Shown here: piece by piece, positions 9,544-14,003 of the stretch
Layout: each line of letters begins with the position of its first letter
How positions within the stretch are numbered: position 1 is the stretch's first letter
Translations under genes and position numbers: made by a program
Notes under the pieces: model-generated
Told to the model about the DNA's origin: nothing
Databases searched by the model: none
Seen by the model: only the letters and a program-made list of their open reading frames with translations
Virus record (IMG/VR): IMGVR_UViG_3300043398_000136
Location: 1-24,413 of that record
Direction: 5' to 3' (one strand)
Source: a virus
DNA length: 24,413 bases

Positions 9544-10266
9544 ATGAAGTTGTTAAAGAAAATTGTGCTAATTTGCGGAGTTTTTGCAGGTATTGCAAAC
9601 GCAGAAGGCTACACTGGAGAAACGCTAGTTAGAACTCCAAAAGGCCACGTCAAGATTCAAGATCTTGTCAAAGGTGACGAAGTGTTTTCTGTTTATGACA
9701 AAGCTTTGGAAGGTGGAAGCTGCTGCGCAAAATGCGATAAAGCAGAAGAGAAACCAAAGTGCGGTGGTGATGTAAGAGTTAAAGCAAAAAAGATTGTAGG
9801 TATTGCTGAAAAAGAATCAACAGAACTATATGAACTAAGAACTGGCGATGATGTTCTAGTTCTTGATGCTGATGCAAAAGTTTTTTCTCTTCACGATAGA
9901 AAATATTTGCCAGTTTCTGAACTAAAAGCTGGTGATGTTACTATCAACGTTTTCTTCCATCCTGTTTTAATTGATTCAATTAATAAGCTAGAAGGAACTC
10001 AAAAAACTTTTGTTATTGAAGTTGAAGAAAACCATACTTTCTTTGCTGGTAAACAAAATATCTTGGTTCACAACGGGCCTTTCATGGCATTGCTATGTGG
10101 TGCTGCTTGTAAAGTTATCAACGCTCTTGGTTGCGCTGGTGCTACTGCTGCTGGAGTTCCAGGCGGGCCTGCTATCGTGGCTTTAATTGTGGCAGTTTGC
10201 GCGACAATGATGGAAGGATCTGCGTTAAGTTGTGCAGCTCTTTGCATGAGCCTACCTAGCCCATAA
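9544..10266 (+). CDS. Secreted degenerate HINT-domain protein with Cys-rich hydrophobic tail
   Basis: 240 residues from the ATG at 9544, chosen because AGGGA lies upstream and a clean Sec signal peptide follows (MKLLKKIVLICGVFAGIANA, cut before EGYTG). An ATG at 9499 would bury the signal. Residues 23-177 follow the Hedgehog/intein plan: GYTGETLVRTPKGHVKIQDL near the N terminus, YLPVSELKAGD (121-131), VIEVEENHTFFAG (157-169), ILVHN (173-177). The nucleophile position is Gly22, not Cys/Ser, and the usual block-B His is replaced (LDADAKVF), so self-cleavage is doubtful. An inserted loop has C60, C61, C64, C73. Residues 178-240 form a hydrophobic tail with C185, C189, C197, C219, C230, C234. It may be an exported antimicrobial or surface peptide; function unproven. 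Confidence 0.75.
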   Translation: MKLLKKIVLICGVFAGIANAEGYTGETLVRTPKGHVKIQDLVKGDEVFSVYDKALEGGSCCAKCDKAEEKPKCGGDVRVKAKKIVGIAEKESTELYELRTGDDVLVLDADAKVFSLHDRKYLPVSELKAGDVTINVFFHPVLIDSINKLEGTQKTFVIEVEENHTFFAGKQNILVHNGPFMALLCGAACKVINALGCAGATAAGVPGGPAIVALIVAVCATMMEGSALSCAALCMSLPSP

Positions 10267-10273
10267 GGTTTAT

Positions 10274-10423
10274 ATGAAAATAAATGTCCCTTTTGTTTTT
10301 ATGATCATTGCAACAATTGCAAACGTGATGATCAAAGAGTTTTATGATGTCCCTGATGTTTTTTACAACGCTATCCAGAACTTTTTACTGCTTTGGTTTA
10401 TGTTTAAAAGCTTCAAAAGATAA
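10274..10423 (+). CDS. Small membrane protein, candidate immunity or holin-like
   Basis: 49 residues, starting 7 nt after the HINT gene stop, with AAGG at good spacing. It has a first hydrophobic segment (VPFVFMIIATIANVMI), a short polar loop with acidic residues, and a second (IQNFLLLWFMF) with a basic end KSFKR. This is a two-segment hairpin or one segment plus an amphipathic helix. It is followed by a strong terminator, so it is the last gene of a two-gene unit with the HINT protein. The layout resembles a peptide/immunity pair, but a holin or an unrelated small membrane protein is equally possible. Confidence 0.6.
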   Translation: MKINVPFVFMIIATIANVMIKEFYDVPDVFYNAIQNFLLLWFMFKSFKR

Positions 10424-10450
10424 GACATTATAAAAATGGATTATCCAAGG

Positions 10451-10480
10451 TGCGTTGTAGGCGACTACAGCGCATTTTTT
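10451..10480 (+). terminator. Rho-independent terminator after the HINT unit
   Basis: TGCGTTGTAG (10451-10460) pairs with CTACAGCGCA (10465-10474) with one G-T wobble, a GCGA tetraloop of the GNRA type, and six T at 10475-10480. It lies 27 nt after the stop of the 49-residue gene. Confidence 0.85.
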
Positions 10481-10512: not shown

Positions 10513-10604
10513 AAACACTTAAACTAAGTTGTTGAAATCAATATACATTCCAGTAATCCCACCTATTTCTTCAAAAAATATCTCAATCCATTTAAACACT
10601 TAAA
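10513..10604. repeat. Pair of 11-bp direct repeats in a non-coding gap
   Basis: AAACACTTAAA occurs at 10513-10523 and 10594-10604, 81 nt apart. They lie in the 200-nt gap (10481-10681) between the terminator and the next small gene. They could be operator sites for the downstream unit. Apart from them and the RBS at about 10670 I see no clear promoter or gene in this gap. Confidence 0.45.
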
Positions 10605-12022: not shown

Positions 12023-12868
12023 CTAACGACAACCCACCGCACCGCTATGCAAGCCACAAATCTTTTCACCTGTTTCATTCATCCATGCTTTAAAAAAGTC
12101 TATAGCTTCTTTACGAGATACGCTAGATAGGTAGCTTGTTGTTTTAATATCACCGCGCGAATTTATTGAAATGATCTTTCTAGCATTGCCTACAACCTTA
12201 TAAGCTGGTCCACCACTGTCACCGAAACATAATGCAATAGGTGCAGTTGTTACATAATCGTTTGAAGATCTTCTAGGATCAGGAACGCGATTAATAACAG
12301 CTTCACCAATCCTAAACTTTCCATCATTGCCACCAGTGCCATTGGATCTAATACAGCCAAAGCCAGTTAGTAAAACGCTGTCGCCAACTTTTACATAATT
12401 CTGATCATCATTAAGAGATTCATAAGGCACATCTTTGACCTTCTCTTTAACTAAGCAAAGAGCATAGTCGGCAGTATGGCTTGTATTGTAAGTTGGATTT
12501 CTCTTACAAACGCTTTCATATTTGATCTTGTTAACAGTAGTAAACTCTGTCACCGCACCATCATCAACGCAATGTGCAGCCTGGATCAATGCCCTTTCTC
12601 CGACAATTGATGCAGTACATTTTGCAACAGTACCATTTTTTCTAAAGTTTCTTGTGTAAACATTGGCTGGGAAAAGCTTCTGATCAACAACAACACCGCC
12701 AATCAAACCTTGATTTTCTTCTAGCCTTTGGTTTTCCTCCACCTGCTCAACATCTGAAAAACTAGACGCAATAGATGAACTAAGATTGTTACTACCTTCA
12801 TGGGATGTCCCTTCCTTTTCACTGCATGAAATTAATGAAATGATAAATACATATGATAAAACTCGCAT
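12023..12868 (-). CDS. Trypsin-fold (S1) serine protease, predicted lipoprotein
   Basis: 281 residues from the ATG at 12868 (GGAG upstream). A longer frame to 12916 would hide the signal. MRVLSYVFIISLISC ends in a lipobox LISC, so Cys15 is probably lipidated after export. A Ser/Glu-rich spacer follows, then the S1 domain: LIQAAHC with His99, TADYALC with Asp134, CFGDSGGP with Ser218, and the full triad. The residue six before the Ser is Ala212, not the Asp that gives trypsin its Lys/Arg preference, so cleavage is more likely elastase- or chymotrypsin-like. Secreted S1 lipoproteins are not phage housekeeping proteins. It lies beside the lysis-like genes and may aid release, alter the host surface, or be a cargo gene. 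Confidence 0.88.
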   Translation of the reverse strand: MRVLSYVFIISLISCSEKEGTSHEGSNNLSSSIASSFSDVEQVEENQRLEENQGLIGGVVVDQKLFPANVYTRNFRKNGTVAKCTASIVGERALIQAAHCVDDGAVTEFTTVNKIKYESVCKRNPTYNTSHTADYALCLVKEKVKDVPYESLNDDQNYVKVGDSVLLTGFGCIRSNGTGGNDGKFRIGEAVINRVPDPRRSSNDYVTTAPIALCFGDSGGPAYKVVGNARKIISINSRGDIKTTSYLSSVSRKEAIDFFKAWMNETGEKICGLHSGAVGCR

Positions 12869-12886
12869 TTCACTTCTCCTTGAAAG

Positions 12887-12916
12887 GATATAAAAATGAT
12901 TTATCAGCTGATTCAA
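12887..12916 (-). promoter_or_regulatory. Possible promoter for the protease gene
   Basis: On the minus strand TTGAAT (12911-12916) and TATATC (12887-12892) are 18 nt apart. This would give a leader of only about 11 nt carrying the GGAG. If real, the protease is expressed separately from the lysis-like genes upstream, as cargo genes often are. The match is mediocre. Confidence 0.3.
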
Positions 12917-13039
12917 TTTGGCGTGCTTTTGATTCTAGGTATGATCGTATTTTTAGAATTTCGAGAAAAACGGCGGAAAGATCAGATAAGCAATAGAATA
13001 AAAGTTCTATATTCGCTTATTATTAAACGCGTGAAATAA
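12896..13039 (+). CDS. Possible small membrane protein on the opposite strand
   Basis: 47 residues, preceded by AAGGA at good spacing. An N-terminal membrane segment (LIQFGVLLILGMIVFLEF) is followed directly by a basic stretch (REKRRKDQ), a convincing positive-inside topology. It is divergent from the protease (27 nt apart) and its last 33 nt run antisense into the end of the transglycosylase gene. Its orientation is against all its neighbours, so either it is a stand-alone small gene or chance. Confidence 0.4.
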   Translation: MIYQLIQFGVLLILGMIVFLEFREKRRKDQISNRIKVLYSLIIKRVK

Positions 13040-13492
13040 CGAAAGCACTTTATCAACATACTCCTGGTTGATGTAGCTTCCGTTACTCTTACGCTTAACA
13101 GAACCCGCATTATATGCCGCTAACTGATCATTCAAGTCAAGATAATCCATACATCTTTTCTCAAAATACTCACAACCCCACATCACGCCTATTTCTGGCT
13201 TGCATAGATCAGGAACCCAGCCACTAAATCCAAGATCTCTTGCAGTGCCACCCATAATTTGCATTAAGCCCCATGAGAACTTTTGTAGTGTGTTCTCTGT
13301 TTGCAGAGTTATATTGAACATGTTTGCAAATAGATCTGCTTTAAACGTATAGGTAAAATTCTTTTCATAACGTGCCGTATTAGCTTGCCAGTTGCTTTCT
13401 GTAGAAATGATCGCACTAATCACATTGGGATTTATTTGGCGTCTTTCACATTCAGCTTTTACTAGCTTGCTTAAATTTTGCGGCACAATCAT
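13007..13492 (-). CDS. Lytic transglycosylase (SLT domain), candidate endolysin or tail lysin
   Basis: 161 residues from the ATG at 13492; a GTG three codons upstream is also in frame. It shows the goose-type/SLT motif series: ISTESNW with catalytic Glu32, FSWGLMQIMGGTARDLG (72-88), and LAAYNAGS (124-131). It has no signal peptide. The enzyme would cleave the glycan strands of peptidoglycan. Its position after a holin-like gene, with a 41-nt overlap, suggests the lysis endolysin. The inserted segment between Glu32 and the SWGLMQ motif is longer than in minimal SLT domains. Confidence 0.85.
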   Translation of the reverse strand: MIVPQNLSKLVKAECERRQINPNVISAIISTESNWQANTARYEKNFTYTFKADLFANMFNITLQTENTLQKFSWGLMQIMGGTARDLGFSGWVPDLCKPEIGVMWGCEYFEKRCMDYLDLNDQLAAYNAGSVKRKSNGSYINQEYVDKVLSLFHAFNNKRI

Positions 13493-13733
13493 TTTTCTCA
13501 CCCTTCGTTTCTAATACAGCGATCTTTTTTTCATGTTCGCTACAAAGATCATGAAGCTTTTCTAACAATTCCAACTTCACTTGCATGCTAGATAACTGGG
13601 ATTTTATATCTGATAGCTTTTCTGCAATCGTTTCTATCTTATCGGCTGTGCTTGTTACTAAATACTTAGCAAGCCCTAGCCCAATAGAGCCACCTATAAT
13701 TGGTGAGATGATTTGATCCCAATCAAAGTGCAT
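13452..13733 (-). CDS. Holin-like small membrane protein
   Basis: 93 residues. A glycine-rich hydrophobic segment near the N terminus (IISPIIGGSIGLGLAKYLV) is followed by a long coiled coil (IETIAEKLSDIKSQLSSMQV, LELLEKLHDL) and a charged end. One membrane segment plus a coiled coil, placed immediately before a peptidoglycan hydrolase, fits an XhlA-like or other class of holin accessory. The holin role is inferred from context. AAGG lies upstream of the ATG. Confidence 0.6.
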   Translation of the reverse strand: MHFDWDQIISPIIGGSIGLGLAKYLVTSTADKIETIAEKLSDIKSQLSSMQVKLELLEKLHDLCSEHEKKIAVLETKGEKNDCAAKFKQASKS

Positions 13734-13742
13734 GGCATTGCC

Positions 13743-14003
13743 TTAAGATTTAAAAGCGCCGATCACATTCTTTGCTAGTTCATAGATACGTGCGGTCAAG
13801 ATACTCACTTCTTTTGATTCAAGATCTTTAATTTCTGGCAAGCAGAAAGGAAGTTCTTTGCAAAAATCAACTACATCTTGGAGAGCTTTTAAGAAAGCAA
13901 TAATGTCGCCAATTCCAATGCCATCTTTTACGATGTTCACTAAACCGCACAACATTCTTTCAAGATCGTCTAAAGTTTCTAGCACATTTTTAATGTCAGA
14001 CAT
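13743..14003 (-). CDS. Hypothetical 86-residue protein of the lysis-like operon
   Basis: First gene of the leftward lysis-like unit, with GAGG at 6 nt spacing and a candidate promoter just upstream. It is helical (VLETLDDLERMLCGLVNIVK), with a semi-hydrophobic middle (GIGIGDIIAFLKALQDVVDF) and FCKELPFCLPEI. It could be amphipathic and membrane-associated, but has no clear transmembrane segment. Function unknown; linked to the holin-like and transglycosylase genes by order. Confidence 0.65.
   Translation of the reverse strand: MSDIKNVLETLDDLERMLCGLVNIVKDGIGIGDIIAFLKALQDVVDFCKELPFCLPEIKDLESKEVSILTARIYELAKNVIGAFKS

What the first reader, a model, noticed from the sequence alone, without database searches (positions are those of the whole stretch)
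9544..10423. Secreted HINT protein with a twin-CX3C hydrophobic tail, paired with a small membrane protein
A promoter-like sequence, a Sec-exported HINT-fold protein, a 63-residue hydrophobic tail with six Cys (C185-x3-C189-x7-C197-x21-C219-x10-C230-x3-C234), a 49-residue membrane protein 7 nt downstream and a strong terminator make a self-contained two-gene unit. CX3C pairs flanking a hydrophobic stretch are what a disulfide-stapled helical hairpin looks like (compare alpha-hairpinins). HINT domains are known pre-toxin processors in polymorphic toxins. The unit could make an exported membrane-active peptide with a dedicated immunity protein carried by a phage; surface exclusion of other phages is another possibility.
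Basis: partly seen in the sequence, partly recalled or inferred. Interest (0 to 1): 0.82.

Follow-up and report, generated by a model that had tools for sequence, protein, structure and literature searches.

The report
Phage exported HINT protein, Cys-hairpin tail
A phage, probably of a Bdellovibrio-like bacterium, encodes an exported self-cleaving-type protein that appears to have kept only the chemistry needed to cut off its own greasy, cysteine-rich tail, next to a tiny membrane protein that may protect the maker; no relative of the tail or the partner could be found, so any toxin role is still a guess.

Summary
The sequence features are real, except the promoter. ORF 9544-10266 encodes a 240-residue protein: a Sec signal peptide, a HINT domain (residues 22-177) and a 63-residue hydrophobic tail with C185-C189-C197-C219-C230-C234. 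A 49-residue membrane protein starts 7 nt downstream, followed by a strong terminator. A profile built from other HINTs hits it at E = 4.3e-15.

The new point is which catalytic residues survive. Cys1 is Gly22 and the block-B Thr and His are gone. His164, His176 and Asn177 are kept. All 39 complete HINTs aligned here keep both Cys1 and block-B His. Splicing and N-terminal cleavage therefore look impossible. Only Asn cyclisation at N177|G178, which would free the tail, remains possible. Signal peptidase would make the other end. The tail is best read as a helical hairpin stapled by disulfides.

Related phages lack the unit, and a terminase relative sits in a Bdellovibrio MAG. Neither tail nor partner has a detectable relative in any collection searched, so co-conservation, toxicity and immunity are untested. 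Verdict: probable pretoxin-like moron releasing a membrane-active peptide (about 0.4); rivals are a superinfection-exclusion anchor or an inactive HINT.

The parts
9544..10266 (+). 240-aa exported HINT protein with hydrophobic Cys tail
   Evidence: ORF and translation; HINT profile E 4.3e-15; SD AGGGAAG
9544..9603 (+). Sec signal peptide, residues 1-20, predicted cut ANA|E
   Evidence: Read from the sequence: charged n-region, hydrophobic core, AxA motif, no lipobox; no signal-peptide program was available
9607..10074 (+). HINT domain, residues 22-177; Cys1 position is G22, block B Thr/His lost, H164, H176 and N177 kept
   Evidence: Alignment A2 and profile alignment; PDB 2lwy match
9700..9777 (+). 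Insertion within the HINT, residues 53-78, with C60, C61, C64 and C73
   Evidence: Gap between the two profile blocks 23-52 and 79-177; Cys positions
10072..10077 (+). Predicted cleavage point N177|G178
   Evidence: End of the HINT match at residue 177; cleavage itself is inferred
10075..10263 (+). 63-residue hydrophobic tail, residues 178-240, six Cys (C185, C189, C197, C219, C230, C234)
   Evidence: Cys framework; hydropathy; helical single-sequence model, pLDDT 68
10274..10423 (+). 49-aa hydrophobic membrane-type protein, candidate immunity protein
   Evidence: ORF and translation; hydropathy; SD AAGG and simulated chance 0.003; no family match
10447..10478 (+). Intrinsic terminator after the pair
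   Evidence: 14-pair stem then T run; -18.6 kcal/mol

Best explanation
The unit is a phage moron encoding a small exported pretoxin-like protein and a candidate immunity protein. Proposed steps: (1) Sec exports the precursor and signal peptidase cuts after residue 20, leaving the HINT domain at the N-terminus (inferred from sequence). (2) With no upstream passenger, the N-terminal half of the HINT chemistry is not needed, and its residues Cys1, ThrB7 and HisB10 are gone (loss shown by alignment; the reason is inferred). (3) The retained His164, His176 and Asn177 cyclise Asn177 and cut N177|G178, freeing the 63-residue tail (inferred, not tested). (4) In an oxidising periplasm the tail folds as a helix-turn-helix hairpin stapled by nested disulfides 185-234, 189-230 and 197-219 (inferred). 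(5) The freed peptide inserts into membranes of cells lacking the partner, perhaps after lysis, and the 49-aa membrane protein protects the producer (inferred, least certain).
For: A HINT profile made without this protein matches residues 23-52 and 79-177 at E 4.3e-15. Catalytic census: 39 of 39 complete HINTs have Cys1 and HisB10, whereas this one has G22 and D/A at B7/B10 and keeps HisF13, HisG6 and AsnG7. Asn cyclisation uncoupled from the N-terminal steps is a documented cleavage route, and A-type BIL domains cut at their C-terminal Asn without ligating (PMC7765530; PMC4031507). HINT is a known toxin-processing domain linked to several export routes, and a hydrophobic two-helix toxin domain (W-TIP) has been described (PMC3482391). 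[quoted passage not shown] Tail: GRAVY 1.38, hydrophobic windows above 2.0; ten Cys in the mature protein, an even number; helices predicted. Genomes of the phylum of the Bdellovibrio MAG carry exported HINT proteins with toxin-like or hydrophobic tails (L101/L184, L224, L223). Related phages lack the unit, as expected of a moron.
Against: No tail or partner relative was found, so neither toxicity, immunity nor co-conservation has comparative support. Cleavage is not shown, and some inteins need the N-terminal steps before Asn cyclisation. Loss of catalytic residues can also mean a dead domain. The retention-versus-loss contrast rests on one sequence and a handful of residues. The census is biased, because many viral loci were fetched with a block-B motif. 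Export across the outer membrane is unexplained.
Confidence: 0.4

Rival explanations
1. Superinfection exclusion or envelope modification: the HINT is not cleaved, the tail is a membrane hairpin anchor that holds the domain at the periplasmic face, and together with the 49-aa membrane protein it blocks entry of other phages.
For: Tail and partner are both hydrophobic enough to sit in a membrane. The unit looks like a moron absent from related phages. No toxin family match.
Against: The complete C-terminal cleavage set H164/H176/N177 would be an odd thing to keep in front of an anchor. Six Cys is unusual for a plain anchor. No match to known systems in PADLOC or PHROGs beyond generic HINT.
Confidence: 0.22
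2. Inactive HINT: a decayed pretoxin or BIL-type protein whose HINT is only a folding scaffold or leader, with the HN end kept by chance or for structure.
For: Cys1, ThrB7 and HisB10 are all lost. Pfam and NCBIfam scores are below curated cut-offs. No relatives show selection on the HN pair.
Against: Both ORFs are intact with SD sequences and a terminator. All three C-terminal residues survive while the N-terminal ones do not, which is not what random decay predicts, though the numbers are small.
Confidence: 0.22
3. Exported factor aimed at the host's own envelope or at the infected cell, for example helping lysis or helping the host against its prey, with the 49-aa protein as a helper rather than an immunity protein.
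For: Host lineage is probably Bdellovibrionota, a group with predators. The phage also encodes an exported trypsin-like protein.
Against: The transglycosylase and its neighbours lie elsewhere on the other strand. Nothing ties the 49-aa protein to lysis. The host assignment rests on one MAG contig.
Confidence: 0.12

Closest known systems
Pretoxin HINT (PT-HINT, PF07591) polymorphic toxins, such as the MafB, CDI and RHS types
   Same: Exported protein, HINT directly before a short C-terminal effector-like region, small ORF directly downstream
   Different: Only 240 aa, no trafficking repeats, Cys1 and block-B Thr/His lost, C-terminal region is a Cys-rich hydrophobic hairpin rather than an enzyme; polymorphism not shown
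A-type bacterial intein-like (BIL) domains (PDB 2lwy)
   Same: HINT sequence similarity, C-terminal His-Asn, no +1 nucleophile (Gly178)
   Different: No Cys1; sits at the mature N-terminus after a signal peptide; Cys-rich insertion in the middle
Engineered C-terminal-cleaving mini-inteins (F4-Asp mutants such as Npu DnaE D118G, PMC7765530; Cys1 mutants from general knowledge)
   Same: N-terminal chemistry disabled, C-terminal Asn chemistry kept
   Different: Natural and exported; F4 is Val here, where most HINTs aligned have Asn or Asp; activity unknown
Plant alpha-hairpinins
   Same: Two CX3C motifs that would sit in two antiparallel helices with nested disulfides
   Different: No sequence relation; here the helices are membrane-length and hydrophobic, with a third Cys pair inside
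W-TIP toxin domain
   Same: Small hydrophobic two-helix domain at the C-terminus of polymorphic toxins
   Different: Tail has no Trp, no TIP and no RxxR
MuF polymorphic toxins of temperate phages
   Same: Phage-encoded toxin, usually with a small ORF downstream
   Different: MuF toxins belong to the packaging module; this one is Sec-exported and lies in the replication-gene region

Membership tests
HINT superfamily | Significant sequence match to HINT profiles over the splicing fold | tested here: met
   Own profile from five other HINTs, E 4.3e-15, residues 23-52 and 79-177; weak hits to curated Pfam and NCBIfam HINT/intein models
HINT superfamily | Catalytic Cys/Ser at position 1 and block B T-x-x-H | tested here: not met
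   G22 at position 1; D and A at B7 and B10
HINT superfamily | C-terminal His-Asn (block G) | tested here: met
   H176-N177
Pfam PT-HINT (PF07591) | Score above the curated cut-off | tested here: not met
   17.1 bits against 27.7
Polymorphic toxin | Export signal, HINT before a C-terminal toxin region, small gene directly downstream | tested here: inconclusive
   Architecture present, but the tail has no known toxin match
Polymorphic toxin | C-terminal toxin varies among relatives and the immunity gene co-varies | tested here: inconclusive
   No relatives found
Polymorphic toxin | Toxicity neutralised by the partner | not testable with these tools
   Needs expression
A-type BIL domain | Autocleavage at the C-terminal Asn | not testable with these tools
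   Residues kept, reaction not observed
Stapled helical hairpin of the alpha-hairpinin layout | Two CX3C motifs in two helices joined by a loop, linked by disulfides | tested here: inconclusive
   C185/C189 and C230/C234 present; helices 2-26, 31-45 and 49-59 in a tail model of pLDDT 68; disulfides not shown
Plant alpha-hairpinin family | Detectable homology to known members | tested here: not met
   No Pfam, NCBIfam or PDB sequence match and no Foldseek match; a very diverged relation is not excluded
W-TIP toxin | RxxR in helix 1 and W plus TIP in helix 2 | tested here: not met
   Tail contains no W, no R and no TIP (sequence; definition from PMC3482391)

The most novel reading that the evidence does not exclude
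A natural, exported HINT domain reduced by evolution to a C-terminal-only self-cleaving release device: signal peptidase makes one end, Asn cyclisation the other, and the product is a disulfide-stapled, membrane-inserting phage peptide with a dedicated 49-aa immunity protein.
Probability: 0.28. Interest if true: 0.75.

Novelty: new variant of a known kind. Interest (0 to 1): 0.52.

Why it matters
If right, it shows how an intein-like domain becomes a one-sided peptide-release device once a signal peptide takes over the other cut, and it gives phages of Bdellovibrio-type bacteria a small exported membrane-active peptide with its own protection gene. The cleavage claim is cheap to test. The tail would be a new peptide scaffold with no detectable relative in the collections searched.

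Tried and rejected
Whole-protein scans of viral contigs and genome contigs and tblastn against phage and plasmid records: only generic HINT or intein matches. Tail alone and 49-aa protein alone: nothing usable (one search gave only weak, chance-like hits, best E 0.008). DNA pattern VHNGP-x5-CX3C in viral contigs: three chance hits. Profile A3: no relative; A2 had no stretch conserved enough to scan with. 65 viral HINT loci: where the HINT end could be read they were inteins or proteins ending at or near VHN(K); none had a Cys tail. Foldseek of the tail model: no match. Lysis role rejected: the transglycosylase 13007-13501 and its neighbours 13452-13733 and 13743-14003 lie on the other strand, and the first and last have relatives in L012. 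Class 2 and class 3 intein splicing rejected: +1 is Gly and block F has no Cys. Lipoprotein export rejected: no lipobox at C11. A halocin C8-like peptide was considered from memory; NCBIfam gave no match for the tail.

Full report
Observation. The ORF at 9544-10266 is 240 aa and is followed after 7 nt by a 49-aa ORF at 10274-10423, each with a plausible Shine-Dalgarno sequence. A 14-pair terminator follows at 10447-10478. The claimed promoter is not better than chance.

The HINT domain. Curated libraries give only sub-threshold matches and the PDB gives the BIL domain 2lwy at 2.9e-4. A profile I built from five other HINT domains, without this protein, matches it at E 4.3e-15 in two blocks, residues 23-52 and 79-177, so residues 53-78 are an insertion; it carries C60, C61, C64 and C73 (positions).

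Catalytic residues. In the alignments the Cys1 position is G22, the block B Thr and His are replaced, and F4 is V157. The block F His (H164) and the terminal H176-N177 are intact. Every one of 39 complete HINTs gathered here keeps both Cys1 and HisB10. This sample is biased, because many of the viral loci were found with a block-B motif. One protein from the phylum of the Bdellovibrio MAG, L101/L184, also lacks Cys1 (Tyr there) shortly after a signal peptide, but it keeps the block-B His and has Arg in place of HisG6. Reviews describe Asn cyclisation uncoupled from the first steps as C-terminal cleavage, and A-type BILs as cutting at their C-terminal Asn (PMC7765530; PMC4031507). The simplest reading is that signal peptidase now makes the N-terminal end and the HINT retains only the reaction that releases the tail. 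This is inference; cleavage was not observed.

The tail. It is 63 residues, GRAVY 1.38, with one basic and one acidic residue, and six Cys against a phage background of 1.1%. A single-sequence model gives helices at tail residues 2-26, 31-45 and 49-59 with mean pLDDT 68; Foldseek finds nothing in the PDB. Nested pairing 185-234, 189-230, 197-219 would staple an antiparallel hairpin, like the Cys1-Cys4 and Cys2-Cys3 pairs of alpha-hairpinins (PMC7191063), but this is a resemblance of layout only.

The partner. The 49-aa protein is hydrophobic, with one or two possible membrane segments, and has no convincing relatives. Its position fits an immunity gene, nothing more.

Context. The window is a 24.4-kb virus record with terminase, primase, tape measure and transglycosylase-type genes. 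Terminase relatives include viral contigs and a contig of a Bdellovibrio MAG at 48% identity, which suggests a Bdellovibrionota host. Related phages that share terminase, ERF-like, SSB or trypsin genes have no HINT match; in L012 the ERF-like and SSB genes overlap, with nothing between them. The unit is therefore best seen as a moron. Profile A2, which includes this protein, finds HINT-like domains in 75 of 368 genomes of that phylum at E <= 0.001, the weaker ones uncertain. Several of the strong ones look exported and end in short or toxin-like tails, one with VHN|CTIGATAAITAGALAGAYRWLNF (L224).

Verdict. The anatomy is sound, and the one-sided loss of catalytic residues is a real and testable finding. 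The toxin and immunity interpretation is plausible, not shown, and cannot be strengthened here because the tail and partner have no relatives in the collections searched.

Noticed in passing
window 12023-12916 (-): Exported trypsin-like serine protease (Pfam Trypsin 3.7e-14) with a lipobox-like LISC near an internal start; relatives in L003, L010, L012 and L013 at 29-41% identity, so it belongs to this phage group.
   Followed up: partly
window 10513-10523 and 10594-10604: Exact direct repeat AAACACTTAAA in the noncoding stretch after the terminator, possibly an operator pair; with one mismatch allowed, 9 of 100 shuffles do as well.
   Followed up: partly
window 9700-9777 (residues 53-78): Cys-rich insertion CCAKCDKAEEKPKC inside the HINT domain, possibly disulfides or a metal site.
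   Followed up: no
L101 200-1042 (-); also L184: Exported HINT protein in the phylum of the Bdellovibrio MAG lacking Cys1 (Tyr) and ending VRN, followed by a C-terminal region of about 110 aa that looks toxin-like by eye.
   Followed up: partly
L223 6225-9293 (-); L182: Two exported HINT proteins in tandem, with a lysozyme-like reading frame upstream of them and several small ORFs downstream.
   Followed up: partly
L117, L118, L120, L121, L123, L125-L127, L129: A group of related viral contigs encode 587-594-aa frames with two HINT ends, the second closing the chain at VHNK.
   Followed up: no
L002: A 5411-base IMG/VR contig identical at protein level to the window's terminase-portal region, apparently the same phage in another record.
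   Followed up: no
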